54,228 bases of DNA. It comes from Streptacidiphilus sp. ASG 303 (GTDB lineage Bacteria; Actinomycetota; Actinomycetes; Streptomycetales; Streptomycetaceae). The notes under the pieces were generated by a model. That model was not told the DNA's origin. It worked only from the letters and a program-made list of their open reading frames with translations, and searched no databases. Positions 20,150 through 43,148 of the stretch are shown one piece after another. The stretch covers positions 1 to 54,228 of the forward strand of contig NZ_JAJLRA010000035.1 of NCBI RefSeq assembly GCF_020991365.1, in the 5' to 3' direction. The position numbers and the translations under genes were made by a program. Position 1 is the first letter of the stretch; each line of letters begins with the position of its first letter.

Positions 20150-20234
20150 GTCCGGGTGGCGGAATGGCAGACGCGCTAGCTTGAGGTGCTAGTGCCCTTT
20201 ATCGGGCGTGGGGGTTCAAGTCCCCCCTCGGACA
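20150..20234 (+). tRNA. tRNA-Leu (anticodon GAG)
   Basis: An 85-nt class II tRNA. The acceptor stem pairs GTCCGGG with CTCGGAC, the anticodon stem CTAGC/GCTAG encloses TTGAGGT (anticodon GAG, reads CUC), a long variable arm follows (GTGCCCTTTATCGGGCGT), and the T arm is GGGGGTTCAAGTCCCCC. CCA is not encoded. It marks the left end of a region of accessory genes, and tRNA-Leu genes are common integration sites. Confidence 0.96.
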
Positions 20235-20238
20235 CAGA

Positions 20239-20828: not shown

Positions 20829-21590
20829 TCAGCCCAGCGGCTTGAGGACACCGACGCGTTGCAGCTCTCTGATGTGCTCCGCGGCGCGTTGCGGAACACT
20901 CCCCCCGCGGACGACCACCCCGGCCTCGATGTTTCGCCGCGCCCCCGCGGACGTGAGATTGGCGCTGCCGAGGAAGAGCACACGCCGGTCGGCCACTGCG
21001 ACCTTGGCGTGCTGGCGCGCGCCCGGAACCGTCCGCTCCCCCGCCGGCCAGTGCCACAGCTGTACGCCGGGCACCTGGCGGAACGCCTCGGCGGGTTCGG
21101 GCCCGTCGAGGAGGCCGGCCGCACCGAGCCGGGTCTCCACCACGATGTCGACCCGTACATCCCGTGCGGTCGCCGCGCGCAGTGCCCGGATCAGCGGGGG
21201 GAACGGGCGGGCCGAGTAGGTCATCGCCAGGATCTCCTCCCGGGCGTCGTTCACCACCTGGACGAGCACCTGGGCGGTCGCCCGTACCGGTACGCCCCGG
21301 CTGGACGGGCCGCTCCACACGGTGCGGACCTCCACACGGTCGCGCTGCTGGGTCCAGGCAGCCGTGAACCCGCGCAGGTAGGCGGCGGCCTCGTACGAGG
21401 TCACGCCGTCGGCGTCGGCCGCGTCCAGGAGCCCGGCGACGGCCGGGAGTGCCGCGGCGACCTGCACGGCGCCGAGCACGGACTCCCGGCTGCGCCCGCG
21501 AGCGAGCAGGCCGGCCAGCGACCTGGTCTGGACGGGCCCGAGAGCGGCCGCCGCCGCGGCGGCGGCCGCCTCGAACGCCCGGCGGCTCAC
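20829..21590 (-). CDS. drmC: DrmC, DISARM phospholipase D-like protein
   Basis: A protein of 253 residues with a PLD-like fold. A single HKD motif is present as H194-x-K196-x4-D201 (QHAKVAVADRR), followed by FLGSANLTSAGARRNIEAGV with the conserved Gly-Ser/Asn. An N-terminal helical region rich in alanine precedes it. The order drmA–drmB–drmC on one strand is the DISARM core (Ofir et al. 2018). In tested DISARM systems DrmC was reported to be dispensable or partly dispensable, so its nuclease role is uncertain. The GTG at 21590 overlaps the drmB stop as GTGA. Confidence 0.88.
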   Translation of the reverse strand: MSRRAFEAAAAAAAAALGPVQTRSLAGLLARGRSRESVLGAVQVAAALPAVAGLLDAADADGVTSYEAAAYLRGFTAAWTQQRDRVEVRTVWSGPSSRGVPVRATAQVLVQVVNDAREEILAMTYSARPFPPLIRALRAATARDVRVDIVVETRLGAAGLLDGPEPAEAFRQVPGVQLWHWPAGERTVPGARQHAKVAVADRRVLFLGSANLTSAGARRNIEAGVVVRGGSVPQRAAEHIRELQRVGVLKPLG

Positions 21591-23503
21591 GGCGCCAGCG
21601 CCTCGGGTGTCAGGACGATCCGGGGATCGGTGCCGAGCGGCACGAGGAAGCGCCGGTCCAGGAAGCGGTTGCCGCGCTCGCAGGTCGTCTCGGAGACGAA
21701 GAGGCACACGTGGCAGGCCGCGCCGTGCAGGAAGTCCGCCGGGGCGTGCGGGAGGCGCTCCGCGCACAGCGGGTCGGAGGAGCAGTGCGAGGCGTCGCGC
21801 AGCGCACGGCGGACGATCCGCTCGAAGTGCGCCTGCTCGGCCAGGGTCACCAGGCCGCCGAGGGTGCCCTCGGAGTCGGGCACGGCGGTGTAGATGAGGA
21901 TCCCCGTACGGGGATCCTCATCGGTGCCGGCATAGATCCTCTCGGCGAGGCTGGCGGAGTTGTAGCCGCACTCCAGGGCGATGGTGCGGATGAGCAGGTG
22001 GGAGAGGGTGTGCAGGGCCAGGTAGCGCTCCCCGGGCCAGCCGTGCATCGGGTCGAACTCACCGGTGAGCCTGTCCGACCGGCGGTTCTCGCGGAAGCGA
22101 CGGAAGGCGTCGCGGTGGGCGGCCACCTCGGGGGACTTCTCGACGCGCCCCACCCAGTCGGCCACCAGGTCCTCGCGCAGCCGCAGGAAGATCCCCTCGC
22201 CACGCACCTCGCTCGCCGGCACCCAGTTCTGCTGGGTGCGGCTGAGCGGAACGCGGGTGACGAGGCCGGGATCCTCGGCGTCCGGGGCGTCGAGCCGGGT
22301 GAAGCCGATGAGCGCCCTCGCCTCGCGCAGCCGCTCGACCTGCCGTACGTCGGCGAACAGACCGGTGAGGGCGGCCGGCACACCCGCGGGGACCACGGCG
22401 AAGTCGTCGGTGGGGGCGGGCCCGGGGGTGGCCGAGAGCGCCTCCCACTCCGGGGTGAGCAGGTCGGCCTGGGTGACGGCCGGGGGCGGTGCCTCCCCGC
22501 CGGAGAGCAGCGCCTCCCGGGCCTGGACGGCCGCAATGACCTGCTCGGGGTCGTACTGCTTGAGGTAACCGTAGGCGGGTGTCAGGGCGAACGCGTCGTA
22601 CACCGGGCGGCTGGTCACCGGGGCGAGTTCCGTCCAGCGGTCCTCGACCAGCTTGGCGACGCCGTCGGAGGGCGCCGGGGGCAGGGCCAGCGTGCTGAGG
22701 GTGAGCGGGAACCAGTGGTTGGAGGCGCCTGCGACCATCAGCAGCGGCTGCAGGGCACAGCCCTCGGCGGCGAAGGAGTCCGACTGCGGGTGCCGGCCCC
22801 GGCACAGCGGCAGGTTCTGCCGACCGCGCACGCCCTGGGCCTCACTGATGTTACGCCTGGCCTTGCAGGCCAGGCAGCTGATGGTCACGTTGGCGGCCTG
22901 GTTGCCGCCGTGGTCCTCCATCCGCAGGCGGGGCTGGGGGACCTGCGGACAGTTCCCGCCCCCGTGGACGAACTCGGTGTACGGGAACTCGTCCAGGTGC
23001 CCGTCGATGCACACGAGGGTGAAGCGGGCGGCCACGGCGAGCGGCTTCTTCCTGCTGCGCTGGCGCTTGCCGCACTCGGTGTGCTCGAAGCGGGCCTCGT
23101 GCGGCGCGCGGGGAACGCTGTTGACGAGGCGGAAGACGCCCGAATCAATCGCGGCCAGGTCGTCGCAGGCGGTGCACCGCAGCCATTGCGGGAAGGGCAT
23201 CACCGGCACGCCGACCGCCTGGGCCGCCAGGCCTTTGGGGTCGCTGTCCGCGCCCTCCAGCCAGGGGGCGGAGCGCAGTTCGGTCACCTTGGACGGGCCG
23301 TGCAGCTGGAGGGCGCGGTTGACGGCGCTGCGCAGCCGGGGCTCGTCCACCAGGTAGTCGTGGACGTTGTTGTAGACCCATGACTCCAGGCCCTTGACGA
23401 GCACGGAGAAGTAGGGGAGGTCGATCAGGGAGCCGACGCCCCCGGTGAACATGAGGTGACTGGGGCGGGCGGCGCCGACCCTGCGGTTGTAGCCGGTGCT
23501 CAT
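21587..23503 (-). CDS. drmB: DrmB, DISARM DUF1998 protein
   Basis: A protein of 638 residues with the DUF1998 (helicase-associated) C-terminal region. Cysteine pairs that could bind zinc are CTAC (C110, C113), CLACKA near residue 208, and a C-terminal cluster with HCSSDPLC and CHVCLFVSETTCERGN. The segment RYLALHTLSHLLIRTIALECGYNSASLAERIY is highly characteristic of DUF1998/DrmB. DrmA and DrmB form the core complex that loads onto and translocates along phage DNA in DISARM (family knowledge). The ATG at 23503 shares one base with the drmA stop (TGATG), so the genes are coupled. Confidence 0.93.
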   Translation of the reverse strand: MSTGYNRRVGAARPSHLMFTGGVGSLIDLPYFSVLVKGLESWVYNNVHDYLVDEPRLRSAVNRALQLHGPSKVTELRSAPWLEGADSDPKGLAAQAVGVPVMPFPQWLRCTACDDLAAIDSGVFRLVNSVPRAPHEARFEHTECGKRQRSRKKPLAVAARFTLVCIDGHLDEFPYTEFVHGGGNCPQVPQPRLRMEDHGGNQAANVTISCLACKARRNISEAQGVRGRQNLPLCRGRHPQSDSFAAEGCALQPLLMVAGASNHWFPLTLSTLALPPAPSDGVAKLVEDRWTELAPVTSRPVYDAFALTPAYGYLKQYDPEQVIAAVQAREALLSGGEAPPPAVTQADLLTPEWEALSATPGPAPTDDFAVVPAGVPAALTGLFADVRQVERLREARALIGFTRLDAPDAEDPGLVTRVPLSRTQQNWVPASEVRGEGIFLRLREDLVADWVGRVEKSPEVAAHRDAFRRFRENRRSDRLTGEFDPMHGWPGERYLALHTLSHLLIRTIALECGYNSASLAERIYAGTDEDPRTGILIYTAVPDSEGTLGGLVTLAEQAHFERIVRRALRDASHCSSDPLCAERLPHAPADFLHGAACHVCLFVSETTCERGNRFLDRRFLVPLGTDPRIVLTPEALAP

Positions 23504-27478: not shown

Positions 27479-27611
27479 ACTTAAACTGCCCTTTCGGCCG
27501 GTCCGCAAGCACCTCGCGGACCATCGGACACCGCACCTGTCGGAGGCGGCCCCTACACTGCTCCCCCTCGGATCAGTCCTCGCATTCTTCACGACGGAGG
27601 GTCAGAGCGCA

Positions 27612-30158
27612 GTGCGCGCACAGGAGATAGCCTTCTTCAAACTCGTCCAGGGCGACAAGCAGTTCCAGGTCCCGCTCTACCAGCGCACCTACAGCTGGGG
27701 CCGCGAACAGTTGGAGCGGCTGTGGGACGACGTCTCGGAGCTGGTCGAGCAGCAGTTGGACGGCGGCGAGCCCTCCGCGCACTTCCTGGGGTCGGTGGTG
27801 CTCGCCCCCGGGCAGATCCAGGCCGGTGGAGTGCAGCGCTGGCTTGTGGTCGACGGCCAGCAGCGGCTGACCACCCTCATGCTCGCCTTCACCGCGCTGC
27901 GCGACCATTTCAGGGCCACCGGGGCCGAGCGGGCGGCGGACCGGGTGGACAGGCAGGTCCTGGTCAACGAGTTCCACGAGGGCCGCGACCACTACCGGCT
28001 GCTGCCGACCCAGGCCGACCGCGACGCCTACACCGCCTGCGTGGAGTCCACCCCTCGGGCGGGCGGCGGCGACAACATCGGCGCCGCCTACCGGTTCTTC
28101 CGCGGCGTCCTGGCCCAGGGCGAGGAGGCAGGCGGCGAGAAGTGGGCGGCCGCGGTGGAGACGGCACTGAAGGACCTGCTGTCGATCGTCGAGATCACCG
28201 CCGAGCGGGGCGACAACGTCTACCGCATCTTCGAGTCCATCAACAACACCGGCGTCGGCCTCAGTCAGAGCGACCTCCTGCGCAACTACGTCTTCATGTT
28301 GCTCCCCCGGACCGGCGAGCGCGTCTACCAGGAGCTGTGGCTGCCGATGCAGCAGCAGTTGGGCCCCAGGAACCTCGAGCTGCTGGTCTGGCTGGACCTG
28401 GTGGTGCGCGGACACAGCAAGGCCAAGCAGAGCGAGATCTACCGGGAACAGCAGAAGCGTCTGGAGCCGCTGGCCGGGGACGAGGAGGCGCTGCGGGAGG
28501 AGGTCGCCCACCTCGCCGAGCGGGGCGGCAGGCTGCTGCGCATCCTGGAGCCGCACCGCGAGCCCTCGCCCTCCCTGCGGCGGGCGCTGGAGCAGCTGGA
28601 GGCCTGGGGCGGCCAGATCCACTACCCGCTCGCCCTGCACCTGCTCGGCCTGGTCGACACCGACCGCGCCACTGCGGAGGAGGCCGCACAGGCACTGCGC
28701 TACGTCGAGTCGTACCTGGTACGGCGGATGATCTGCCAGATCCCGACCAACAACCTCAACCGGATCTTCATGGAGGCACCCAGGGAACTGGAGGAGGACC
28801 GCTCCCCGGCCGAGGCCGTGCGCCGCCTGCTGTCGGGTCGGCGCCGCAGGTGGCCCACCGATGAGGAGCTGCGACAGGCGGTGCGTACCAAGCCCTTCTA
28901 CTGGGGTGGCCGGCCGACGCAGCGCATGCACGTGCTGCGCAGCCTGGAGGCGAGCCACGGTGCGAGCGAGCCGGTGGACTTCGACAAGGCGGCGCTGACC
29001 ATCGAGCACGTGCTGCCCCAACGCCCTCAGCAGGCCTGGTTCGACCTGCTCGCGGAGGAGACCGAGGACGGCCAGACCCCGCAGGAGCTGCACGACCTGC
29101 TGGTGCACACGCTCGGCAACCTGACACTGTCGGGAGAGAACTCCAAGCTCTCCAACCACCCCTTCCGGCGCAAGCAGGAGATCCTCGACTCCAGCGCCCT
29201 GCGGATGAACCAGGAGATCGCCGCGGCGGAGCGCTGGGGCCGCGCCGAGATCCTGGAGCGGGCCGACCGGCTGGCGCAGCGGGCGATCACGCTGTGGCCG
29301 GGGCCGATCGGTGCGGTGCGGACGGCGGACGAGGAGTGGGCCGGCTGGGCGACCCTGCGTGCGGCGCTGGTCGCGATGCCGAGCGGCACCTGGACGACGT
29401 ACGGGGACGTGGCGGAGCTGGTCGGCAGCCATCCGGTGCCGGTGGGCAACTACCTGGCGAGCAAGTCGGGGATCATCGGCGCCTATCGGGTGCTCACCTC
29501 GGACGGCCGGGTCTCGGCCGCCTTCCGGTGGCCCGAGGGCCGCGGTGAGGGGACGCCGCAGGAGCTGCTGGAGCATGAGGGCGTGCCGTTCGACGGTTCG
29601 GGCCGGGCGCACCGGTCGCGACGACTGGCCGCCGCCGAGCTGGCCACCCTGCTCGGCCGTGAGGTGCCGCAGGAGGGCCTGTCCGACCCGCTTCCGGATG
29701 CGGAGAACGCAGCAGCGGCCAGACGCTTCGAGGGCCAGCTGCGGGAGAACCAGCCGGAGGCGGCCGAGGGGGTGCTGGAGGCGCTGCGCTTCTGGGAGCA
29801 GCAGGGCGGCTATCGCGACTACGGCCGCACCGCGGAGACGAGCTGCTTCCCGATGCTGGACGCCGGCACCGCCACGCAGCAGCACCTCCTGTGGCCGCTG
29901 GCCCTGTACCCGGTCACCGGGACCGCGGAGGTCGTCTTCCAGTACCTGAAGAACATCAGCCCGTTCGACGACACGGCACTGCGACGCGAGCTGCTGGAAC
30001 GGTTCAACCAGATCGACGGCATCGAACTGGCCGAGGCCAAGCTGGAACTGCGGCCGTCCTTTCCGCTGCAGGTTTTCGCAGAGCACAGCGGGGAGATCTG
30101 CGCGGTCCTGGAATGGTTCGTCCACACCGCGGCCCTGGACCTTGCCCTCCGGAAGTGA
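27612..30158 (+). CDS. GmrSD/SspE-like DUF262–DUF1524 restriction protein with alkyltransferase-like domain
   Basis: A protein of 848 residues. The DUF262 (GmrS-like NTPase) domain has VPLYQRTYSW near residue 20, VVDGQQRLTTL with DGQQR at 81–85, and IFESINNTGVGLSQSDLLRN near 206. The DUF1524 His-Me finger nuclease has IEHVLPQ (H466) and TLGNLTLSGENSKLSN (N503). GmrSD and SspE proteins cut modified phage DNA or sense phosphorothioate DNA. Unusually, residues about 575–645 (MPSGTWTTYGDVAELVG … YRVLTSDGRVSAAFRW) resemble the DNA-binding helix-turn-helix domain of O6-methylguanine transferases, but without the PCHR active-site cysteine, as in alkyltransferase-like proteins. About 150 further residues are unassigned. 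GTG 27612 is the start; GGAGGG lies 12–17 nt upstream. Confidence 0.85.
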   Translation: MRAQEIAFFKLVQGDKQFQVPLYQRTYSWGREQLERLWDDVSELVEQQLDGGEPSAHFLGSVVLAPGQIQAGGVQRWLVVDGQQRLTTLMLAFTALRDHFRATGAERAADRVDRQVLVNEFHEGRDHYRLLPTQADRDAYTACVESTPRAGGGDNIGAAYRFFRGVLAQGEEAGGEKWAAAVETALKDLLSIVEITAERGDNVYRIFESINNTGVGLSQSDLLRNYVFMLLPRTGERVYQELWLPMQQQLGPRNLELLVWLDLVVRGHSKAKQSEIYREQQKRLEPLAGDEEALREEVAHLAERGGRLLRILEPHREPSPSLRRALEQLEAWGGQIHYPLALHLLGLVDTDRATAEEAAQALRYVESYLVRRMICQIPTNNLNRIFMEAPRELEEDRSPAEAVRRLLSGRRRRWPTDEELRQAVRTKPFYWGGRPTQRMHVLRSLEASHGASEPVDFDKAALTIEHVLPQRPQQAWFDLLAEETEDGQTPQELHDLLVHTLGNLTLSGENSKLSNHPFRRKQEILDSSALRMNQEIAAAERWGRAEILERADRLAQRAITLWPGPIGAVRTADEEWAGWATLRAALVAMPSGTWTTYGDVAELVGSHPVPVGNYLASKSGIIGAYRVLTSDGRVSAAFRWPEGRGEGTPQELLEHEGVPFDGSGRAHRSRRLAAAELATLLGREVPQEGLSDPLPDAENAAAARRFEGQLRENQPEAAEGVLEALRFWEQQGGYRDYGRTAETSCFPMLDAGTATQQHLLWPLALYPVTGTAEVVFQYLKNISPFDDTALRRELLERFNQIDGIELAEAKLELRPSFPLQVFAEHSGEICAVLEWFVHTAALDLALRK

Positions 30159-30169
30159 CGCAGTCTGTC

Positions 30170-30199
30170 CCGGGTCGGCCGAGTGTCCGGCCGACCCGG
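30170..30199 (+). terminator. Terminator of the GmrSD-like gene
   Basis: Twelve-bp perfect stem (30170–30181 with 30188–30199) and a 6-nt loop, starting 12 nt after the stop codon of the plus-strand gene. No U-tract. Confidence 0.75.
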
Positions 30200-30352
30200 A
30201 GCGGGTGGCACGTGCAAGGCCGGGAGTGCGGGCGCCCAGCCGACGAGCAGCTGGACCGCGTGGATCATCCGGCGGAAGGAGCGGCTGCGTTCCGCGGCCG
30301 CGGAGAGTTCCATAACTGCGGAGAACATGGCCTGGTGCAGGGTCTCCTTGCA

Positions 30353-30380
30353 GTGACCCCTGTGCCGGCACAGGGGTCAC
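30353..30380. repeat. Perfect 28-bp palindrome
   Basis: Fourteen-bp arms with no spacer (GTGACCCCTGTGCC and its complement). It sits between the ends of two convergent genes, so a bidirectional terminator is the simplest reading. The absence of a loop would also fit a dimeric protein binding site. Confidence 0.8.
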
Positions 30381-30418
30381 CGACGGACCGCAGGGGGCGG
30401 CACAGCTGCCCGCATGGC

Positions 30419-30610
30419 TCACCGTCCCTTGATCACGGCCTCGAGCAGATGGACGCGAACCGGGTTCACCAGCCAGGGCGTGCGGAGCCGGTAGCCGAGC
30501 AGCCGCCCCACAATGGCCTCCGTGTCAGGGGCCGGGTCGGATGCGGAAGCCGGGGAGGCGGCTTCGAGGGTGTCCGCGGTGTCGGCAGGACTCGCGGGCG
30601 GCGGGCGCAT
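30419..30610 (-). CDS. Possible small protein of unknown function
   Basis: Sixty-three codons with high G/C third positions. The N-terminal half is alanine/proline/serine-rich; the C-terminal half, AIVGRLLGYRLRTPWLVNPV then RVHLLEAVIKGR, looks like ordered protein. The ribosome site is weak, so it may be the tail of a decayed gene rather than an independent one. It lies 108 bp downstream of the Hhe-like gene on the same strand. No family recognised. Confidence 0.35.
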   Translation of the reverse strand: MRPPPASPADTADTLEAASPASASDPAPDTEAIVGRLLGYRLRTPWLVNPVRVHLLEAVIKGR

Positions 30611-30718: not shown

Positions 30719-33700
30719 TCATCGGGCCGGCCTGCGCGCCGTCCTGACGGCGTTCTCCAGCGCCGCTCTGATACGCGGACCCATCCGGCTGAAACCCAGT
30801 TCCTGCATGGCCTCGCGGACCAGCTCCTCCTCGGTGCGCAGAAGCGTGTCGCTCTCGATCCAGCGGATCAGACCTACCAGCTGGCGCTCCGAGTAGGCCG
30901 TGATCGGCTGACCTCGGACGAGGGCCGGACGCCTGCCTCTGGCCGGCCCGGCCTCCGCCGGCGCGCCCACGGGCACATCCGTGCCCATCCGACGGGTGGG
31001 CCCGGTGGGGACTCCTGCGCCGGAACGCTGGGCCGGCAGGGAGACGGACTCGGCGGGCCCCGGGGACGGCGACGCCCCGTCGGCGGTCGCGACCGCCCTG
31101 TCATAGGCATCCCTCGCCCTGCGCACTTCACGCTCGGGGTCGCGGAACCAGGCGGTGGACCAGATCCGGTGGAACGTCCAGCCCAGTCGCTCCAGCTGTT
31201 CCTGCCGGAGACGGTCCCGATCCCGGGCGGTGGCGGAGGAATGATAGGTGGCTCCGTCGGCCTCGATGGCCAGGACCATGCGGCCGCGGTCCCGAGGATG
31301 CCGGGCGGCGAAGTCCAGCCAGTACCCGGCGACGCCCCACTGGGCGACGAGCGGGATCCCCTCGGCGGTGAGCCGGTCGCGGACGTCGATCTCGAAGGGG
31401 TTCAGGGCGGGCTTCTCGCGGGCGACCGTGCCGAGGTCGTTGCCGCCGGAGGCGGCGAACTCGATGTAGGAACGCAGCAGCTTGGCGCCCTGCGCCTTGA
31501 GCCGGTCCGGGTCCATGTCGTGGGCACCGAAGGAGCTGACGACGGTCATGCGGTGCCGGGCGCGGGTGACGGCGACGTTGAGCCGACGTTCACCACCGGT
31601 GTTGTTCAGCGGGCCGAAGCGGTAGAGCATCCGGCCGTCGGTGCTCTTGCCGTATCCGACGGAGAGGATGATCGCGTCCCGCTCGTCGCCCTGCACGCGC
31701 TCCAGGTTCTTGACGAAGAAGCGCTCCTCGCGATCCTCCCGGAAGAAGTCGTGCAGGTCGTCGCGCCCGTCGGTGGCGGCGCGGATCGCGGCTTCGATCC
31801 GGTTGGCGTGCTCGATGCCCATGGTGATCACACCGAGCGACTCGGTGGGGCGCTGCTCGGCGTGCTCGATCACCAACCGGACGACGCGGTCGACCTCGGC
31901 GCTGCCGCTCCTCTCCTGCCCGGGGACGGCCGGCCCCTGGTCCACCAGGACGTGGGACAGGGCGCCGTCCGGGGAGACGCCAGGGAAGGTGGTGAGCGAG
32001 GAGTCGTAGATCCAGGCGTTGGAGAAGGCGATGAGCCGCTCGTCGCGGCTGCGGTAGTGCCAGGTGAGGCTGCGCACCTGGAGCATGGCGCCGAGCACGT
32101 CGAGCACCGACTCGTACCCGGTGGTGTACGAGACGGCCGGCCGGCCGTCCAGGCTGTCGTCGGACACCTCCGGCTCCTCCTCGGAGGCACCGGAGAAGAA
32201 GGAGGTGGGCGGCAGCTGGCGCCGGTCGCCGGCCACGACGACCTGCCCGGCACGCATGATCGCGGGGATCGCCTCGGCCGGCACCACCTGGCTGGCCTCG
32301 TCGAAGATGACCACGTCGAAGAGCTGCCGGGCCGGCAGCACCTCGCTGACCACCAGCGGGCTCATGGCCCAGCACGGCTTGAGCCTCGTGAGCACCTCCG
32401 GCGCCCGGTCGAGCAGGTCGCGCAGCGACAGGAGCCCGCGCTTGCGGTTCGCCTGGGCCCGGACCAGGTCGGACTGCTCCGGGTGCTGCTGGAGGGCCTG
32501 GTGGATGCGCTCGGCCACGGCCCGCCTCACCCGGGGCGCCCCGGCACGGATGTGCTCGGTGTCGGCCTGGCGGAACCTGCCGACGGTGCCGTCCATCTCG
32601 ACCGGGTCGAAGGCACCGTAGGCCGCATCGTCGAAGCCGGCCTGCTGCAGGAGTGAGGCGTGCCAGCAGTGGTCGTAGACGGCCGCCGCGGTGTCCTCGT
32701 CCACGCGGCGCCGGACCAGCTCGTCCAGCAGCGGCTGCAGGCCGAGGGCCGCGAGCCGTGTGCTCAGCCCGTGCAGCTCGGGGAGCCGGTGGAGTGTCGC
32801 CTCGTCGGCGGCCAGGGCGTCCAGCAGACGGCCGAGCCCGTCGAAGGGCAGAGTGTCGAGGCTGCGGCCGGGCAGTAGGGCGGCGAGGGCCGTCAGGCCC
32901 TGGTCGAGGGCGGTGAGCGCGGCGGTGGTGGCGGCGAGCAGCTCGGCATAGGAGTCGCGGTCGGGGGCGGCGCCCTCCGCGCCGAGGGCCTTCCACTGCT
33001 CGAGCTGGGCGGACGCGTCGGAGAGTGCCGTGTGCAGCTCGCGTCGGCGCGGCGGGGCCTGCAGCGTGAGGGCCCTGGCCTGCTTGCGGAGCGCACGGCG
33101 CCGGCCCCAGGCCATCTGCACGCCGTGCTCCTTGCGCCAGCTGCCGGTGGCGGTGGCGGCGGTCAGTGCATCCAGCTCCCCCGCGAACGCCTCATGGCGC
33201 AGGACGGCGAGGCTCTGCTGCACCCGTTCCAGCAGTCCGGCTGCTGCACGCAGCTCCTGTGCCGTGCCGGGTACCCGCAGGGAGGTGCCGACGGCGAGGT
33301 CCTCCGCGGCGCGACGGGCCGCGGGCAGGAGGGTGCCGCGGAGCTCCGCCAGCGCGGTCGACGCCCTCCTGGCGGCGTCCCGGTCGGTCACGGTCCGCCG
33401 GGCCGGGTACCAGGGTGAGCTGTCGGCGGACAGCGTGGTGCCGCCCAGGGCCGCGAACCGGGCCAGGTCGTCGCGCGCGCCGAGGTGGGTCTCACCATGG
33501 AGGCGGGAGAGCACCGGGCCGCTCAGCCGCTGGTCGGTGGCCGCGTACGACCGGGTCCCCAGGCAGCGGTTCTGCGCGTCGGCCAGGGTGGTGCCCCAGG
33601 GGCTGCGGGGTCGGTGCATCAGGGCGTCGTGGTGGGTGAGGCGGGTGCGGCGCTGCGTCAGGGTCCGGTGGAGCTCGGTGTTGTCGGGCAGCGGCGTGCG

Positions 33701-34831
33701 TCCGGCCCGGGTGAGGGCGGTGGACAGGTCCTGCAGGATGCGGCGGCGGTCGCCCGCACCGCCGTGGAGGTCCATGACGAGGTCGTCGAGGCCGACCTTG
33801 TCGAGCCGGCCGAGAACGGCGTCGATCGCGGCCCGCTTCTCGGCCACGAACAGGACCTTGCGGCCCCGGGCGGTCAGTGCGGCGATGAGGTTCGCGATGG
33901 TCTGGCTCTTGCCGGTGCCGGGCGGCCCCTCGATGACGAGGTTGTGTCCGGCGAGCACCGCGTTGACGGCGTGGCTCTGCGAGGAGTCCGCGTCGAGGAC
34001 GAGGAACTCGTCGGAGGGGGCGGTGGTGTCGGGGAGGTCGAGCTGTACGTCGCCCATGTCCCGGCGGACGGCGCGCGCGGCCTCCTGGTCGCCGGCGAGG
34101 GCGGCGACGACGTCGTTGCCGGCCAGGAGGGCGGTGGCGTTCTCCAGGTCGTGCACCATCGGCAGCTTCGCATAGGTGAAGTTCCCGACGACGGTGCGGC
34201 CCATGACGCGCAGTCCGGGGACGGCCCGCGCCGCGGACCGCAGGTGGTCGACCGCCCGAGCGGAGTCGGCTGCCGATTCGGCCAGGTCGACCAGCCTGTC
34301 CGGGTCCACCTCCACACCGAAGCGGCGCTTGAGGAGGTGGAGCAGCGGCAGGTTGGGCTGGGCCTCGTCGGCCACGGTGAGGGTGAGGTCGCCCTGGCCG
34401 AGGCCGGACTGCTCGATCCGCACGGGCCACAGCAGCGCGGGGGCCGCGGGCGGGCGCGCCGCCTCGGCGTCGTCCCAGGTGACGAGCGCAGGGACCAGGT
34501 AGGCGGTGAGGATGCCGCGTTCCTCCAGGAGCTCCTGGGCCCTGCGGTGGACGGTGCGGGCCCGCTTGAGGGCGTCCGGCTGCTGGTCCTCGTCGAACAG
34601 CTGGGAGATCCGCTGGGTGCGGCCCTGCAGGAGCGAGGCCAGGGCGCCGGGGCGCGCCCGGCCGAGGTCCAGCGTGCCCGCGGTCAGGTCACGGTAGAAG
34701 AGCAGCGGGTTGCGGGCGCTGGGATCGACGAGGGTGTTCGTCCAGGTCTTGACGGCCTGGCGGACCAGGCGGGTCCGGGCGTCGGACGGCCCCGCCGAGG
34801 CAGGCCGGCCGGGATGCTTGTGCTGGGTCAT
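30719..34831 (-). CDS. DUF4011–SF1 helicase–Vsr-like nuclease (Hhe-type defence protein)
   Basis: A protein of 1370 residues. The N-terminal DUF4011 domain (about 20–230) is followed by a split superfamily 1 helicase: Walker A GPPGTGKS at 302–309, DEASQ from 844 followed by VVVAGDRRQLPPTSFF, and a C-terminal UvrD/Upf1-like motor ending in NVAVTRARHRMTVV. The motor halves are separated by about 500 residues of helical insert. Residues about 1140–1240 form a Vsr/DUF559-type PD-(D/E)xK nuclease: E1147, D1173 (YWLDFA) and E1190-A-D1192 (LAIEADG). A DUF3320-like tail ends the protein. This domain order matches the single-gene Hhe defence type (Gao et al. 2020). Start ATG 34831 has a weak ribosome site; an ATG at 34903 is the alternative. 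Confidence 0.85.
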   Translation of the reverse strand: MTQHKHPGRPASAGPSDARTRLVRQAVKTWTNTLVDPSARNPLLFYRDLTAGTLDLGRARPGALASLLQGRTQRISQLFDEDQQPDALKRARTVHRRAQELLEERGILTAYLVPALVTWDDAEAARPPAAPALLWPVRIEQSGLGQGDLTLTVADEAQPNLPLLHLLKRRFGVEVDPDRLVDLAESAADSARAVDHLRSAARAVPGLRVMGRTVVGNFTYAKLPMVHDLENATALLAGNDVVAALAGDQEAARAVRRDMGDVQLDLPDTTAPSDEFLVLDADSSQSHAVNAVLAGHNLVIEGPPGTGKSQTIANLIAALTARGRKVLFVAEKRAAIDAVLGRLDKVGLDDLVMDLHGGAGDRRRILQDLSTALTRAGRTPLPDNTELHRTLTQRRTRLTHHDALMHRPRSPWGTTLADAQNRCLGTRSYAATDQRLSGPVLSRLHGETHLGARDDLARFAALGGTTLSADSSPWYPARRTVTDRDAARRASTALAELRGTLLPAARRAAEDLAVGTSLRVPGTAQELRAAAGLLERVQQSLAVLRHEAFAGELDALTAATATGSWRKEHGVQMAWGRRRALRKQARALTLQAPPRRRELHTALSDASAQLEQWKALGAEGAAPDRDSYAELLAATTAALTALDQGLTALAALLPGRSLDTLPFDGLGRLLDALAADEATLHRLPELHGLSTRLAALGLQPLLDELVRRRVDEDTAAAVYDHCWHASLLQQAGFDDAAYGAFDPVEMDGTVGRFRQADTEHIRAGAPRVRRAVAERIHQALQQHPEQSDLVRAQANRKRGLLSLRDLLDRAPEVLTRLKPCWAMSPLVVSEVLPARQLFDVVIFDEASQVVPAEAIPAIMRAGQVVVAGDRRQLPPTSFFSGASEEEPEVSDDSLDGRPAVSYTTGYESVLDVLGAMLQVRSLTWHYRSRDERLIAFSNAWIYDSSLTTFPGVSPDGALSHVLVDQGPAVPGQERSGSAEVDRVVRLVIEHAEQRPTESLGVITMGIEHANRIEAAIRAATDGRDDLHDFFREDREERFFVKNLERVQGDERDAIILSVGYGKSTDGRMLYRFGPLNNTGGERRLNVAVTRARHRMTVVSSFGAHDMDPDRLKAQGAKLLRSYIEFAASGGNDLGTVAREKPALNPFEIDVRDRLTAEGIPLVAQWGVAGYWLDFAARHPRDRGRMVLAIEADGATYHSSATARDRDRLRQEQLERLGWTFHRIWSTAWFRDPEREVRRARDAYDRAVATADGASPSPGPAESVSLPAQRSGAGVPTGPTRRMGTDVPVGAPAEAGPARGRRPALVRGQPITAYSERQLVGLIRWIESDTLLRTEEELVREAMQELGFSRMGPRIRAALENAVRTARRPAR

Positions 34832-34931
34832 GGGCGTCTGTCCCGGGGAGGCGGTAGGGAAGGTGTCGGCAGCGAGTGGCCGTGGGCTCGCGCCGCCTGG
34901 CATGCCCGGCCCGTCCGGACAAACGACTTGC

Positions 34932-34947
34932 GTTGACCGCGTTCACA
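34932..34947. promoter_or_regulatory. Shared island motif, copy 2 (upstream of the Hhe-like gene)
   Basis: GTTGACCGCGTTCACA on the plus strand, about 100 bp upstream of the ATG at 34831. A TATGAT hexamer on the minus strand lies immediately upstream of it (34948–34957 region), so the motif would overlap or follow the transcription start if that is a −10 element. Confidence 0.65.
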
Positions 34948-35081
34948 TCATATCGCCGACCCGTACCCCCCTCCAGGGGTCGGCGGGGTCCCGGCGTCGA
35001 CGGCATCCCGCCGGTGGCGGGACTGCGCGGGATCGGGCGCCGTCGGCGGGCCGCACCGCCGGCGCCCGGCTCCCGGCCTCG

Positions 35082-35390
35082 CTACTTCTCGTGCGGACGG
35101 AGCGGGTGGTCGCGCAGGGGGCTGCTGCTCGGTGGGACCAGGGCGCGGACCGGCGCGGCCGGCACGGCCTGCACGATCCGGTGGGACGGCCTTGCTGCGG
35201 ACTCGCCGGGCGCGAGGAACACGGCCCTGGTCGAGCCGCCGCCCCGGGACGGGGCCGCCGTCTGCGCCGCGCGCGACCGGCGGAGGTGGCTGGGGATCTG
35301 TCCGGCACGGATGGCGGCGGCGCGCTCGTTCGCCGCCCGCTTCGCGGCCGCCTTGCGCTTCCGCTTTGCTTCACGGGTCTCGTTGGCCAT
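35082..35390 (-). CDS. Small basic protein of unknown function
   Basis: A protein of 102 residues. The N-terminal third is strongly basic and helical (REAKRKRKAAAKRAANERAA), the middle has IRAGQIPSHLRRSRAAQ, and the C-terminal half is proline/serine-rich and likely disordered. It could bind nucleic acid, but no family is recognised. The ATG at 35390 was chosen because the protein sequence looks ordered from there; the ribosome site (AGGGCTCCCACC) is weak. The frame stays open to a GTG at 35492, which is less likely. A copy of the shared island motif lies 110 bp upstream. Confidence 0.6.
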   Translation of the reverse strand: MANETREAKRKRKAAAKRAANERAAAIRAGQIPSHLRRSRAAQTAAPSRGGGSTRAVFLAPGESAARPSHRIVQAVPAAPVRALVPPSSSPLRDHPLRPHEK

Positions 35391-35499
35391 GGTGGGAGCC
35401 CTGCCTGTCGGTCGAGGAGGTCCGGGACTGCCGAGCACCGCGTCCGGGGTGGGCGAGGAACCTCGCCCACCCCGGACGGACACTGACACCATGTCACGC

Positions 35500-35515
35500 G
35501 TTGACTGAGCTCACA
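35500..35515. promoter_or_regulatory. Shared island motif, copy 3 (upstream of the small basic protein gene)
   Basis: GTTGACTGAGCTCACA on the plus strand, 110 bp upstream of the ATG at 35390 and 177 bp beyond the stop of the next gene upstream. It differs from the other copies by one T-to-C change in the right half. Confidence 0.62.
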
Positions 35516-35691
35516 ATGGAAACGTCGAAAGTGGGTAGGTCGACTCCGGATCTGTGGGGTCGCGACGGCCGGCCGGCTGCACGGGAACGGCGGGAACCGC
35601 CCGCCCGATCCGGCAGGCGGGCAGGCGAGCAGCCGGACAGGCAGGACAGCCGCAAGGGCGGGGGGCGCCCCCGCACCCACCGCCGTCGACG

Positions 35692-37167: not shown

Positions 37168-37363
37168 GGTGCTCTCCCCTGGCACTGGACCGACGACGGG
37201 CGCCGCTCCGCACGACGGATCTGCCGGCGGAGCGGGTGGAGCGTACTGGGTGTGCGGACGACCCGTTCGGAGCCCGCCGCGGTCGAGGGTGCGGACGGGA
37301 CGGAGCCCGGATCCGCCGCCCCGGCGGGCAGCGGTCCGCCGCCGGCGCGTTCACGGCGGCGCC

Positions 37364-38617: not shown

Positions 38618-38655
38618 CACGGGCTCCTGGAGTGGGTCTGCGCAGGGGAGGGCGC

Positions 38656-38696: not shown

Positions 38697-41600
38697 TCAG
38701 AACAGGGCGCCCTCGGGCGGGAACAGACCGTTGTCCTCGAACGAGCCGCTCGACGCCCTGCCGGTCCGGCTCCGGCCGGACAGCCCCTGCGCCTTGCGGC
38801 GCCGCGCCTCCGCGGAGGGCGGGGGCATGTCGGGGTGGATCCTGGGCTTCCTGTGCTTGTCGAGGAAAACCTCGTCCGCGTAGGCCTGGTGGTTCAACTG
38901 GCGCAGCCGATCGATGATCTCGGTCCGGGCAAGCAGACCGATGGTGTAGCGGGGGCCTTGGTCGGTGTCGTGGAACCCGTGGTCCAGCGGCACGGCGACG
39001 TGCGTTGGGTCGGCCGGCGGGGTGGCGCCGGTCGGGTCGAGCAGGTCGTGCCACCCGTACGCGGCGACGGTCGCCCGGTCGATCTCCACGTGGATGGCAC
39101 GGAGCTCGGCGATGTCATCGTCGGTGCAGGAGGCGTCGTGGACCAGGTTGTAGGTGGCGGTGAGGCCGATGTTGCGACGCAGCATCAGCTCCCGGCGGAA
39201 GGTGTCGAGACGGGTACCGGCGGCACGGAGATCCTCGGTGAGCGGCGGGCGGACGAGGGTCTCAAAAACGTCCGTGGGTGTGTAGCGAAGGTCACCCTTG
39301 AGGGTTCCAGCTCGGTCGAGAGCCCACCAGTAATGCGGAGCACTGCTGAGCATGCCGAGCAGCGCAAAGTCATCAGAAGCAAACACACCAAGCATGTGCG
39401 AAAAGACCTGACCGGTCGGCACCATGACCGGCATCACGACCTTGCTCACGAGGGTGATGACGATGCACCGCTCCAACGGCGCGATGGCCTTCACCATGGC
39501 GGGCCGCTTTTCGGCGTAGTGCCACCAATAGTCCCGATAGACCTTGCGATTGTTGATTTCCCGTTCCGGCTTGACCTGGTGGAGAAGCTGCTCGTATGCC
39601 TTCGGGAAATCCTTCGCCCGCCCTTCGGACCAGTCGTGGAAGTTGATGACCCAGCGCTCGCTGCCGTGCACCGGGCTGGTGTTGACGTCCTGGCCGATGA
39701 GATACGGGAACAGCACTTCGCGGTACCGCTCGTCCTCGGCGATCCAGGCACGGGCCTCGGTCTCCGGCAGCGTGAAACCAAGGCCAAGGACAATCGACCC
39801 CTGGAAGGACTTGCCTTCGTTGCCCTCCAGCCGCTCGGCCCAAAAGGCCTCCCGTGTAGTCGGGTTGAGCGACGTGGAGATGCCCCGCGGGACGGGCGTT
39901 CCGCCCAGTACCCGCACGGCACCATCGGCGACCGCCGCCCGGCTCGTCCACACGGCGCAGTACTCCAGCACTGCCGAAGACGACGGCCAGGGAGCGCTCT
40001 TGACCGCACGGCGGATCTCCACACCGCTCCTGGCGAGCTGGTCGAGCCCGACCTCACGGGTGTCCCCCTGAGCCAGGGTGTTGGTGGCGATCAACCCCGT
40101 CTGGCCGCCCCGGTTGAGCATGTCGTGCGCCCGCAGTTCGAAGTAAGCGACGAGGTCGGCGCTCCCCCGCACCCCGTTCGCCACGTGGTCGACCAGGTAC
40201 TCCCGGTACGCCTCGCCCATCGTCCCCGTGAGCTTCTGCCCGCCCAGGAACGGCGGGTTGCCGATGACGGCGTCGAAGCCGCCACGGTCGGTGAAGACCT
40301 CCGGGAACACCAGCGGCCAGTGGACGGGCACGCGCTCCAGGCCGCCCTCCGGCTGCTCGCTGGCGAGCCAGCGGCGGGCGAGGTCGCGGGCTTCATCAAC
40401 CTTGGCCGCATCGTCGGCGAACTCGCCGTCCGGGCCGATGGCCTGGGCCGTGTCGGCGGCCATGGGAAAGAGGTTCCTGACCCGCTCGCCGCCCTCGTAC
40501 CAGGGCTCGCGGCCGGCCGCGCAGGTGGCCAGGGCAGCGCCGACGACGAGGTCGCCGATCAGGCGCAGCCGCTCGGTGTGCTGCTCGACCAGGGCGAGCC
40601 GGTGGCGCTTGTCGGTGAGGGCGGCCAGGCCGTCGCCGTCGATGCCGGTGATGGCGCGGCGCTCCTCGGCGATGGCCGCGACCAGGGCGTCCGTGCCGGC
40701 CATGGCGGCGACGAGGTCGCGCTTCTCCACGTCCAGGTGGACGGCCTTGAGCTGCTCCAGCGAGGTGACGCCCAGCAGGGCGTCGCCCGCGACGAGGCGG
40801 TCGTCGAGGAAGGTGAAGGGGCGGTCCGGGTCCATGGAGACCAGCCACAGGGACAGCTTGGCCATCTCGACGGCCATGGGGTTGATGTCCGCCCCGTACA
40901 GGCAGTGCTCGATGACCTCGCGGCGGGCCTCGATGACGGCGCGGTCGTGCCCGCCGTCCAGCGAGGGAGCGGCGGACGTGCCCGGCCCGTCCGGGGAATC
41001 GCCTGCGCCCTCCGGCCCGTCCGAACCGGCGCCGGAGACCGGGGCACCCCCGTCCTCCTGCGCGCGGGCCTCGATGAGCCGGTCGGCGAGGTAGCGGCAG
41101 GCGGCGACGAGGAACGCACCGGAGCCCATGGCGATGTCGGCGACCTTGAGCGCGAGGATCTCCTCGGGCGACTTCAGCCGCCACGCCCCGCGGTCGGCGG
41201 TCTGCAGCGGGCCGGGCTCGTGGACGAGCGGCTCCAGGGCGTGCTCGACGACCTCCTCGGCGAGGAAGCGGGGCGTGTAGTGGGTGCCGGTGTTGCCGCG
41301 CAGCGAGGACTCGGTGACGTACAGCCCGCCGGGGTTGATGACGACCGGCAGGCCGCGCAGGTCGCGGCGGATGATGCCGTGGAACGGCAGCAGGCGCTCC
41401 GCCGTGTCCCGGTCGCGGCAGGCCGCGTACAGCTGCTTGCCGGCCTCGGTCCGCTCCTCGCCGGACAGCGGGGCGAGGAGCCGCTCCAGCGCGGCGGGGG
41501 TGCCGATGCCGGGCTTGGGCTCCTTGTACGCGTCGGAGATCTTCTTGGCGAGGGTCTTCAGGCTGCCCCTGCTCGCGGCGGCCATGGCCTCCAGATCGTG

Positions 41601-43148
41601 CAGGCGGACCTCGTGCTCCTTGCCCGCAGGCCCGATCAGGCCCACGACGGTGTCCACGGCGCGCTGCCCGTCGTAGGAGAGCAGGCCCTCGTAGACGTAG
41701 CCGATCTGCTCGACGTCCAGGGCGCGGAAGGTGAGGCGGCGGCGCTCGCGGGTCCTCCCCTTGCCGATCTCGACGTACTGCACGGCGCGCAGCATGTGCA
41801 GCACGGTGCGGTCGTCGACCGGCAGCAGCGGGGAGGCGCCCTCCAGCCAGGCGTAGCGCTGCGGGTCGAAGATCGAGCCGTCGTAGGCGGGCAGGTGCAG
41901 CTCGGGGTGGTCCACTCCCCCGTGCACGGCGTGGAAGAGGGCGATGAGGCGGTGCCAGGCGGCGGTGGTGTGCTCCAGGGTGGCCTCGCCCTCGGCCTGG
42001 GCGCGCTCCTCCAGGTCGGCGCAGAGCCGCCCGGCGGAGTACGAGGCGGCGTACACCTCGTTGTCAGCGGGCAGCAGGCCGCGCTCCTCGGCGAAGAGCA
42101 GGAAGACCAGGCGCATCATGACCGCGACGGCGCCGCGGTAGACCTCCTGGGCGGAGACCTGGGCGGCGTGCAGGCCAGGTGCGCCGCGCTCCATGGCGCG
42201 GGCGTCGGCGCGGCCGATGGCGTCGACGAGGAGTTCGACGGCCTGGCGGACCTGGACGCCGAGCGCGTCGGTGACCTCCTCCTGGTTGTCCAGGCTCCTG
42301 CGCAGCAGCGGCAGGAGGGTCTGCTCCTCGGGGACGCCGAAGAACCGGGAGCGGCGCAGCAGGGAGATCATGGCGCGGACGACGTCGCGCTCGGCCTTCT
42401 CGTTCCAGCCGACGGTGTCGAACAGGGCGGTGGTGGTGACGCCGCCGACCGGCGCCCACACCAGGCACCACCAGCGGCCGTCGGTGACCAGGCCGAGCCC
42501 GGTGCGGTGGTGGCGCAGCAGGTGGGCCATCCGGTCGGCGGGGGTGGCGGACCAGGCGGAGCCCCGCAGGCGGGCGGTGGGGGAGGTGCCGGCGGGCAGG
42601 ACCATGCCGAGGAGCGGGATGCGCTTGGCGGCGGCCTCGGGGCCGGCCTCGGCGGCCGGGTCGGCGCCGGGCTCGACGAGGGCGAAGTCGGGGCGCAGCA
42701 CGGTGTCGTGCTCGCGCACCGGGACGGCGAGCAGGTCGAGCAGCGGGTCGGCGGGCGCGGCTGCGTCCGCGGCGCTGTCCCCCGGGCCGTCCGCGCGGCC
42801 GTCGCTGCCGGTGCCGGTGCCGGGGCGCAGGTGCAGGGCGTCGCCCCACTCCAGCAGCTCGCGCAGCACGTAGGCGATCCACTCGTCGCGCCCGGCCGCG
42901 GGGTCGGCCTGCCACAGGGCGTGCTGCAGGCGGAGCCGGCGGCGCTGGGGCTTGTCGACGGCGTCGAGCTGGGGCCAGGTGTCCAGCAGGACGGGGAGGG
43001 TGAGGAAGGGGCCGGAGACCTCGACGAGGTTGAGCCAGTCGAGGTGCTGGCGCCGGCCGTCGGCGGCGTGGGCGACGGCGGCCGCGCGGCCGGCGGTGCG
43101 TCGGCCGCGTCCGGCTGCGGCGGCGGGGCGGGGGGCGATGCTGCTCAT
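38697..43148 (-). CDS. drmMI: DrmMI, DISARM N6-adenine DNA methyltransferase
   Basis: A protein of 1483 residues of the Eco57I/PglX-like class. The SAM-binding motif MGSGAFL has G675–G677, the catalytic NPPF is at 964–967 (FDAVIGNPPFLGG), and NTGTHYTPRFLAEEVVEHAL marks the start of the methyltransferase core. The first 600 residues resemble the N-terminal region of large type IIG/PglX proteins without a visible nuclease motif. The C-terminal 400 residues should hold the target recognition domain. In DISARM it marks host DNA so the DrmABC complex ignores it. The ATG at 43148 overlaps the drmD stop (ATGA). The stretch 39240–40100 is clearly less GC-rich than the rest of the gene. Confidence 0.9.
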   Translation of the reverse strand: MSSIAPRPAAAAGRGRRTAGRAAAVAHAADGRRQHLDWLNLVEVSGPFLTLPVLLDTWPQLDAVDKPQRRRLRLQHALWQADPAAGRDEWIAYVLRELLEWGDALHLRPGTGTGSDGRADGPGDSAADAAAPADPLLDLLAVPVREHDTVLRPDFALVEPGADPAAEAGPEAAAKRIPLLGMVLPAGTSPTARLRGSAWSATPADRMAHLLRHHRTGLGLVTDGRWWCLVWAPVGGVTTTALFDTVGWNEKAERDVVRAMISLLRRSRFFGVPEEQTLLPLLRRSLDNQEEVTDALGVQVRQAVELLVDAIGRADARAMERGAPGLHAAQVSAQEVYRGAVAVMMRLVFLLFAEERGLLPADNEVYAASYSAGRLCADLEERAQAEGEATLEHTTAAWHRLIALFHAVHGGVDHPELHLPAYDGSIFDPQRYAWLEGASPLLPVDDRTVLHMLRAVQYVEIGKGRTRERRRLTFRALDVEQIGYVYEGLLSYDGQRAVDTVVGLIGPAGKEHEVRLHDLEAMAAASRGSLKTLAKKISDAYKEPKPGIGTPAALERLLAPLSGEERTEAGKQLYAACRDRDTAERLLPFHGIIRRDLRGLPVVINPGGLYVTESSLRGNTGTHYTPRFLAEEVVEHALEPLVHEPGPLQTADRGAWRLKSPEEILALKVADIAMGSGAFLVAACRYLADRLIEARAQEDGGAPVSGAGSDGPEGAGDSPDGPGTSAAPSLDGGHDRAVIEARREVIEHCLYGADINPMAVEMAKLSLWLVSMDPDRPFTFLDDRLVAGDALLGVTSLEQLKAVHLDVEKRDLVAAMAGTDALVAAIAEERRAITGIDGDGLAALTDKRHRLALVEQHTERLRLIGDLVVGAALATCAAGREPWYEGGERVRNLFPMAADTAQAIGPDGEFADDAAKVDEARDLARRWLASEQPEGGLERVPVHWPLVFPEVFTDRGGFDAVIGNPPFLGGQKLTGTMGEAYREYLVDHVANGVRGSADLVAYFELRAHDMLNRGGQTGLIATNTLAQGDTREVGLDQLARSGVEIRRAVKSAPWPSSSAVLEYCAVWTSRAAVADGAVRVLGGTPVPRGISTSLNPTTREAFWAERLEGNEGKSFQGSIVLGLGFTLPETEARAWIAEDERYREVLFPYLIGQDVNTSPVHGSERWVINFHDWSEGRAKDFPKAYEQLLHQVKPEREINNRKVYRDYWWHYAEKRPAMVKAIAPLERCIVITLVSKVVMPVMVPTGQVFSHMLGVFASDDFALLGMLSSAPHYWWALDRAGTLKGDLRYTPTDVFETLVRPPLTEDLRAAGTRLDTFRRELMLRRNIGLTATYNLVHDASCTDDDIAELRAIHVEIDRATVAAYGWHDLLDPTGATPPADPTHVAVPLDHGFHDTDQGPRYTIGLLARTEIIDRLRQLNHQAYADEVFLDKHRKPRIHPDMPPPSAEARRRKAQGLSGRSRTGRASSGSFEDNGLFPPEGALF

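What the first reader, a model, noticed from the sequence alone, without database searches (positions are those of the whole stretch)
27612..30158. DUF262–DUF1524 restriction protein carrying an alkyltransferase-like DNA-binding domain
Between the His-Me nuclease domain and the C-terminus, residues about 575–645 match the helix-turn-helix fold pattern of O6-alkylguanine transferases (PSGTWTTYGDVAELVG … RVLTSDGRVSAAFRW) but lack the PCHR reactive cysteine. Alkyltransferase-like proteins recognise bulky or alkylated guanines. In a GmrSD/SspE-type enzyme this could be a sensor for modified phage bases.
Basis: partly seen in the sequence, partly recalled or inferred. Interest (0 to 1): 0.7.

Follow-up and report, generated by a model that had tools for sequence, protein, structure and literature searches.

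The report
GmrSD restriction enzyme with alkyltransferase-fold domain
A probable bacterial anti-phage DNA-cutting protein carries a domain with the fold of a DNA-repair protein that lacks the residues used there for repair and for flipping bases; the combination was reported in 2015, but the altered pocket and the gene's place in a defence island make its role testable.

Summary
The 848-aa ORF has a GmrSD core (DUF262, DUF1524) followed by an O6-alkylguanine-transferase-fold domain: PF01035 at 34.4 bits, cut-off 27; its predicted structure matches Atl1 on DNA at Z 11.4.

In 53 distinct family proteins (window included) the reactive cysteine is replaced (Ala 52, Pro 1). The arginine finger, which alkyltransferase-like proteins keep for flipping bases, is absent in 53 of 53; V, Q, I, M, L or A stands there. 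The flipping Tyr, an Arg and a nearly invariant F-x-W remain. So it is not a canonical alkylguanine sensor; a re-tooled DNA reader or a plain DNA clamp is likelier.

The architecture is in print: Machnicka 2015 found PF01035 in GmrSD homologues "mainly from various Streptomyces species" (passage). Added here: the gene sits in a complete DISARM island; in 16 of 53 carrier genomes of its family it lies within 25 kb of a full-length DrmA, a placing that recalls BrxU in BREX. Three related GmrSD proteins carry RAMA plus this domain. Function is untested.

The parts
27612..30158 (+). GmrSD-AGT-fold gene, 848 aa, GTG start; GGAGGG at 27596-27601, ten bases before the start (read from sequence)
27639..28295 (+). 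GmrSD_N / DUF262 domain (residues 10-228), NTPase-type
   Evidence: DGQQR invariant in 53 of 53
27852..27866 (+). DGQQR motif, residues 81-85
28851..29279 (+). GmrSD_C / DUF1524 His-Me (HNH) nuclease domain (residues 414-556); H466, N503, N510, N515 invariant in 53 of 53
29340..29639 (+). AGT/ATL-fold domain, about residues 577-676 (PF01035 stretch 584-658 = 29361-29585)
29400..29402 (+). Tyr597, equivalent of the base-flipping Tyr, 53 of 53
   Evidence: alignments; tally
29436..29438 (+). Val609 at the Arg-finger position; no Arg in 53 of 53 (V31 Q11 I6 M3 L1 A1)
   Evidence: alignments to Atl1, 2kif, Ada; tally
29481..29489 (+). Ala624-Tyr625-Arg626 in place of Cys-His-Arg of PCHR (Ala 52, Pro 1 of 53; four proteins have a Cys one place earlier, at 623)
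29523..29531 (+). Phe638-Arg639-Trp640, aligned with the Tyr-Arg-Trp of E. coli Ada
29694..30155 (+). C-terminal domain, about residues 695-848, no Pfam match; fold unassigned
20829..21767 (-). DrmC (DISARM)
   Evidence: PADLOC E 1.4e-108
21587..23503 (-). DrmB (DISARM)
   Evidence: NF038324
23503..27462 (-). DrmA (DISARM helicase), divergent from the gene in question
   Evidence: NF038325
30719..34903 (-). DUF4011 / SF1 helicase with MTES_1575 nuclease domain (PDC-S37/ProA-like)
38697..43148 (-). DrmMI (DISARM methyltransferase)
   Evidence: PADLOC 1710.7 bits
43145..46507 (-). DrmD (DISARM helicase)
   Evidence: PADLOC 1390.2 bits
49318..51939 (+). UvrD-like helicase, a recurrent neighbour of the gene elsewhere (true start uncertain)

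Best explanation
It is a single-chain GmrSD-type (type IV-like) restriction nuclease in a DISARM island. The DUF262 domain binds and hydrolyses NTP and gates the DUF1524 His-Me nuclease; these steps rest on motifs and on characterised relatives (BrxU, DndI, SspE). The AGT-fold domain is the DNA-contacting accessory module and would sit in the minor groove as AGT/ATL proteins do. It cannot do the repair chemistry (Cys to Ala) and cannot flip bases with an arginine (finger to V/Q/I/M/L/A). It most likely works as a re-tooled reader, with a pocket formed by Tyr597, Ala624, Arg626, Phe638 and Trp640, that tells modified (phage) from unmodified DNA and so licenses cleavage, while DISARM handles unmodified DNA. 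Shown: architecture, predicted fold, motif conservation, island placement. Inferred: nuclease activity, DNA binding, pocket geometry, reading of a modification, division of labour with DISARM.
For: Domains and intact motifs. Fold. Pocket positions nearly invariant while the finger position varies among small hydrophobics and Gln. The domain stays open and conserved in 53 proteins, down to about 45% identity to the window protein. Three other GmrSD proteins carry RAMA, called a modified-base reader in PMC12839542 (passage), next to the same domain: L024, L025, L026. The gene lies in a complete DISARM island and within 25 kb of full-length DrmA in 16 of 53 carriers. Precedent: BrxU, a GmrSD homologue inserted in a BREX island, cuts modified DNA while BREX acts on unmodified DNA (PMC8565348, passages).
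Against: No direct evidence that the domain binds DNA or any modification. 37 of 53 carriers have no full-length DrmA found within 25 kb, so DISARM partnership is not general. The loss of the Arg finger removes the best-known flipping device of this fold. The domain is less conserved than the nuclease domain (mean entropy 1.15 against 0.86).
Confidence: 0.45

Rival explanations
1. The AGT-fold domain is a non-specific DNA clamp only: it helps the nuclease hold DNA and reads nothing.
For: Loss of both the reactive Cys and the Arg finger; AGT helix-turn-helix contacts are described as non-specific in the minor groove (PMC10779285, passage).
Against: Pocket positions remain nearly invariant (Tyr597 and Arg626 53 of 53, Phe638 52, Trp640 51), which a plain clamp does not obviously need, although they may be structural.
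Confidence: 0.28
2. One reading: it recognises O6-alkylated or bulky guanine as Atl1 does and directs cleavage of such DNA.
For: The best-scoring solved folds are ATL proteins; no reactive Cys; flipping Tyr kept.
Against: No Arg at the finger in 53 of 53, a feature that ATL proteins keep. A GmrSD-fused relative in another lineage, L035, does have Arg there, so the loss is not general to all such fusions.
Confidence: 0.1
3. The domain is a docking surface for a partner, such as the UvrD-like helicase encoded nearby, in the way ATL proteins are thought to hand lesions to excision repair (recalled).
For: A UvrD-like helicase gene is found in the fetched flanks (about 8 kb each side) in 18 of 28 close loci; it is adjacent and divergent in L097, L102, L105, L107 and L109. 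One such gene is in the window at 49318-51939, about 19 kb away.
Against: Defence islands are rich in helicases; in 12 divergent-subfamily loci only one weak hit (35% identity) was seen. The orientation is not constant (convergent in L098-L100, same strand in L096). No contact evidence.
Confidence: 0.1
4. It is a phosphorothioate (PT)-sensing enzyme like DndI or SspE.
For: DndI (9jfl) is the best solved sequence match (E 3.9e-18); Tyr23 aligns with the PT-sensing Tyr25 of DndI (PMC11662687, passages).
Against: That Tyr belongs to the YQR-x-YSW stretch shared by the three aligned relatives. No DndC relative (TIGR03183) was found in the window's genome, so no host PT mark is expected; other PT genes were not searched.
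Confidence: 0.05
5. The domain is a decaying relic of a fused repair enzyme without present function.
For: Catalytic residues lost; entropy higher than in the nuclease domain.
Against: 15 positions of the domain invariant and the frame open in 53 proteins.
Confidence: 0.02

Closest known systems
PF01035-bearing GmrSD homologues of Machnicka et al. 2015 (PMC4619093; passages seen)
   Same: DUF262 and/or DUF1524 plus DNA_binding_1, mainly Streptomyces; very likely the same family
   Different: In the passages seen the paper only names the domain; residue loss, the RAMA combination and DISARM placement were not in those passages
BrxU (GmrSD homologue in a BREX island; PMC8565348, passages)
   Same: DUF262-DUF1524 core; inserted in a defence island beside a methylation-based system
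   Different: No AGT-fold domain mentioned in the passages seen; BREX, not DISARM
DndI / SspE (PT-sensing DUF262-DUF1524 nickases; PMC11662687, passages)
   Same: Best solved-structure matches by sequence in the N-terminal domain
   Different: Work with host phosphorothioation genes, of which DndC was not found here; no AGT-fold domain mentioned in the passages seen
Atl1 and other alkyltransferase-like proteins (3gva, 3gx4, 2kif)
   Same: Fold, no reactive Cys, flipping Tyr
   Different: Arg finger lost, Ala instead of the usual Trp at the Cys position; fused to a nuclease
E. coli Ada C-terminal domain (1sfe)
   Same: Fold and the (Y/F)RW segment
   Different: Ada keeps PCHR and the Arg at the finger position

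Membership tests
GmrSD family (DUF262 + DUF1524, type IV) | DUF262 with DGQQR | tested here: met
   motif 53 of 53
GmrSD family (DUF262 + DUF1524, type IV) | DUF1524 with conserved His/Asn of the His-Me nuclease | tested here: met
   H466, N503, N510, N515 53 of 53
GmrSD family (DUF262 + DUF1524, type IV) | NTP-dependent cleavage of modified DNA | not testable with these tools
   needs purified protein
Alkyltransferase-like (ATL) proteins | AGT C-terminal fold | tested here: met
   predicted model, Z 11.4 to 3gx4, 99 residues, 3.7 A
Alkyltransferase-like (ATL) proteins | reactive Cys replaced | tested here: met
   Ala 52, Pro 1 of 53
Alkyltransferase-like (ATL) proteins | Arg finger retained | tested here: not met
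   0 of 53; position fixed by alignments to Atl1, 2kif and Ada
Alkyltransferase-like (ATL) proteins | flipping Tyr retained | tested here: met
   53 of 53
Alkyltransferase-like (ATL) proteins | binds O6-alkylguanine DNA | not testable with these tools
   binding assay needed
O6-alkylguanine transferases (AGT/Ogt/MGMT) | PCHR active site | tested here: not met
   GAYR here; no Cys at the position in 53 of 53; a Cys one place earlier in 4
SspE/DndI phosphorothioate-sensing systems | host phosphorothioation genes (DndC-type) | tested here: not met
   TIGR03183: no match at E 0.001 in the window's genome, 200 contigs, 99.5% complete; the same search rang in 5 of 14 control genomes, none over the cut-off; other PT genes not searched
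DISARM core component | constant member of DISARM loci | tested here: not met
   19 of 43 genomes with full-length DrmA also carry the gene; accessory at most

The most novel reading that the evidence does not exclude
The AGT fold has been turned into a base-flipping modification reader of a new kind: a V/I/M/L/Q plug replaces the Arg finger, an Ala-floored pocket with an Ada-like aromatic lid takes the flipped base, and binding of a phage guanine derivative (for example a 7-deazaguanine or another bulky purine) licenses the GmrSD nuclease. It would serve as the modified-DNA arm of DISARM islands.
Probability: 0.22. Interest if true: 0.75.

Novelty: new member of a known kind. Interest (0 to 1): 0.42.

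Why it matters
Readers of phage DNA modification known from restriction enzymes come from a few folds (recalled). A DNA-repair fold recruited as such a reader would link damage recognition to phage defence, and would give DISARM a second layer, as BrxU does for BREX. The residue swaps found here (finger and cysteine) point to mutants that separate reader, clamp and relic. The architecture itself has been in print since 2015, so the value lies in the testable detail.

Tried and rejected
Considered and set aside: canonical ATL sensing of alkylguanine (Arg finger missing); repair activity (no Cys); PT sensing (no DndC match); decay (domain and frame kept). The antisense ORF 27573-30422 overlaps the gene and is taken as spurious.

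Led nowhere or spoke against: the domain alone gave no significant match in a single-sequence search of solved structures (2kif E 0.14, Atl1 E 0.91). Pfam for the C-terminal domain at E up to 10 gave nothing (0 of 4 proteins); VIA rows for it reach Z 5.8 at most, with unrelated proteins, so its fold stays open. NCBIfam for the protein itself: 0 families. At E 1e-5 phage records hold no match to the domain, plasmid records one. A scan of IMG/VR gave 4 distant relatives at 31-32% identity; three matches end at query residue 565-566 and one at 609. No exact repeat of 14 bases or more of the tRNA-Leu gene was found in the window. Paper searches for GmrSD with alkyltransferase, alkyltransferase-like with modification-dependent and restriction, DUF262 with MGMT and PF01035 with restriction and phage defence listed no paper. 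One search listed 19 papers holding at least two of its terms; passages of five of them were seen (PMC4619093, PMC10952713, PMC11662687, PMC8565348, PMC12707154), the other 14 only in the listing. The searches cover open-licence PMC papers only. The full-length model (mean pLDDT 70.6, poor N-terminus) was not used for fold claims.

Rows dropped or mended: L015 has a broken frame (13 stops on reading through) and was left out. Of 53 carrier genomes, the window's own and 12 others (partial, split, with an internal stop, or simply not taken) were not among the 40 fetched. In one search, 57 proteins became 53 after removing duplicates. The first tally wrongly held the window itself and a chromosomal alkyltransferase of the same genome among its 48 rows and is replaced. 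Two control rows look gap-shifted at the finger column. One search lists only part of its matches; its 43 rows at E = 0 were used as full-length DrmA. Weaker listed rows in nine carriers (G451, G518, G551, G584, G597, G601, G621, G665, G674) lie on other contigs or over 200 kb away; rows of three more (G618, G684, G692) were not printed. Frames printed were partly of the wrong strand; one search repeated this on both strands. The helicase neighbour was met with an antisense query; one search gave the right frame and one search used it.

Full report
What is there. The ORF at 27612-30158 (+) encodes 848 residues. Pfam finds GmrSD_N (10-228, E 2.5e-34), GmrSD_C (414-556, E 9.3e-26) and DNA_binding_1, PF01035 (584-658, E 2e-8, 34.4 bits, cut-off 27). 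PADLOC's best match is a model called Orf5 over residues 11-562 (E 6.5e-140), that is, over the GmrSD core only.

Fold. A model of residues 565-848, made from 17 sequences, has mean pLDDT 78, with ten-residue blocks of 70-93 over the domain. Foldseek's first 37 ranks are all alkyltransferases, ATL proteins or tags made from them. VIA-align gives Z 11.4 (99 residues, 3.7 A) to S. pombe Atl1 on DNA, 10.7 to 2kif and 9.2 to human AGT. By sequence alone the single domain finds nothing significant (2kif E 0.14), but a profile of eight domains finds 2kif (E 4.9e-6), Atl1 (7.5e-6) and Ada (1e-4).

Homologues. A scan of genome contigs gave 17 relatives, 55-76% identical; 16 have intact frames and keep the domain, and L015 has a broken frame. 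In 394 genomes of the window's family, 53 have a match; a few are fragments, split, or carry an internal stop. Forty of these loci with about 8 kb flanks were fetched. Intact proteins from both sets plus the window came to 57, of which 53 were distinct: 40 close (window included) and 13 divergent. They were chosen by similarity to the full-length protein, so they speak for conservation of the domain, not for its frequency among GmrSD proteins.

Key residues. Alignments to Atl1, 2kif and Ada fix the positions. Over the 53 proteins: Cys position Ala 52, Pro 1; Arg-finger position V 31, Q 11, I 6, M 3, L 1, A 1, and no Arg; flipping Tyr597 53; Arg626 53; Trp594 53; Phe638 52; Trp640 51. Four proteins have a Cys one place before the reactive position. 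Trp640 aligns with the Trp of E. [quoted passage not shown] the numbering was not reconciled). As a control, 29 other frames found with the same profile have Cys at the reactive position in 19 rows and Arg in the finger column in 21; the rest are GmrSD fusions, other unusual forms, a truncated row and two gap-shifted rows. The review passages say that ATL proteins keep the Arg finger and the Tyr. So the domain has the fold and part of the pocket, but fails one defining feature of ATL proteins.

What that means. The known repair chemistry is excluded by the missing cysteine, and flipping by an arginine at this place by the missing finger. Flipping by another plug residue is not excluded: V, L, M and Q serve as plugs in other base-flipping proteins (recalled, no call). 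Conservation of the pocket positions speaks mildly for a re-tooled pocket, but they may be structural. The domain is less conserved than DUF1524 (mean entropy 1.15 against 0.86) and more than the C-terminal domain (1.36).

Relatives with other layouts. A phylum-wide search with the domain profile matched 46 of 396 genomes, 49 rows. Thirty rows gave loci and were read. One is the window; five others are GmrSD fusions, L022, L024, L025, L026 and L035; most of the rest are short PCHR-type frames. The other 19 rows had no locus. L024, L025 and L026 carry RAMA (59.2, 63.5 and 55.4 bits, cut-off 35.2) between DUF1524 and the AGT-fold domain, though PF01035 itself falls below its cut-off there (26.7, 22.8, 21.3 against 27). 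L035 has Arg at the finger position. RAMA is called a reader of modified bases in PMC12839542 (passage). Machnicka 2015 also lists DUF4268 and DUF4357 as extra domains of GmrSD homologues. GmrSD proteins thus vary in their added modules, which fits a reading role but does not prove it.

Neighbourhood. The window holds DrmC 20829-21767, DrmB, DrmA, DrmMI and DrmD, all on the minus strand: the gene set of class 1 DISARM (class label recalled). The gene lies between DrmA and a DUF4011 helicase-nuclease, facing the other way. Among the 17 named relatives, 6 (L006, L009, L010, L011, L014, L015) show a DrmA, DrmB, DrmMI or DrmD match in their flanks. In the family, 43 of 394 genomes have a full-length DrmA row at E = 0, 53 have the gene, 19 have both, and in 16 (window included) the two lie within 25 kb, at gaps from 0.4 to 22 kb. 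Fisher's one-sided p is 9.5e-8, uncorrected for relatedness. DISARM is thus a frequent but not constant neighbour. Of the 40 loci fetched, a UvrD-like helicase is in the flanks of 19 (18 of 28 close, 1 of 12 divergent) and a 2000-residue helicase-nuclease in 10.

Precedents. BrxU, a GmrSD homologue inserted in a BREX island, cuts modified DNA while BREX handles unmodified DNA (PMC8565348, passages). DndI, the nearest solved relative by sequence, is a PT-regulated nickase (PMC11662687, passages). The window's genome has no DndC match, so a PT role is unlikely. It has three other PF01035 matches, so the fusion is not its only gene of this kind, and a second GmrSD-like gene.

Prior art. Machnicka et al. 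[quoted passage not shown] The architecture is therefore known. The searches listed no study of its function; one search listed two papers naming GmrSD, DISARM and Streptomyces, seen only in passages. Subscription papers were not searchable, so work on it may exist.

Verdict. Observation confirmed; interpretation partly supported; architecture not new. The likeliest account is a DISARM-island type IV-like nuclease whose AGT-fold domain contacts DNA as a re-tooled reader (0.45), with a plain clamp as the main rival (0.28).

Noticed in passing
L024, L025, L026: GmrSD proteins with RAMA followed by the AGT-fold domain: two putative reader modules in one chain.
   Followed up: partly
window 49318-51939 (+); L097, L102, L105, L107, L109: A UvrD-like helicase recurs near the GmrSD-AGT gene; adjacent and divergent in these five loci, convergent in L098-L100, on the same strand in L096; possibly a two-gene unit.
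   Followed up: partly
window 30719-34903 (-); L004 830-6880 (-): Two different SF1 helicases with MTES_1575 nuclease domains (PDC-S37-like) beside the gene in different genomes.
   Followed up: no
window 46720-48255 (-) and 48302-49597 (-): Two neighbouring kinase genes, the first matching PD-T4-6 models (E 3.6e-93), the second a Pfam Pkinase.
   Followed up: no
window 34943-37354 (-) and 37364-38620 (-): Two proteins inside the DISARM island with no Pfam (E 0.001) or PADLOC (E 0.01) match; the second recurs at about 60% identity in L006 and L008.
   Followed up: no
window 29694-30155: C-terminal domain of the gene (about residues 695-848), present across the family, without any Pfam match.
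   Followed up: partly
L030, L034, L041: Other AGT-fold proteins with Pro or Ala in place of the reactive Cys (NPHR, GAHR, GAWR), not fused to GmrSD as far as seen, of unknown role.
   Followed up: no
L019, L020 (window's own genome, another contig): A second GmrSD-like gene in the same genome, 47% identical over residues 2-99 and matching no further than residue 523.
   Followed up: no
window 20150-20235 (+): tRNA-Leu gene near the DrmC end of the island; no exact repeat of it within the window.
   Followed up: partly
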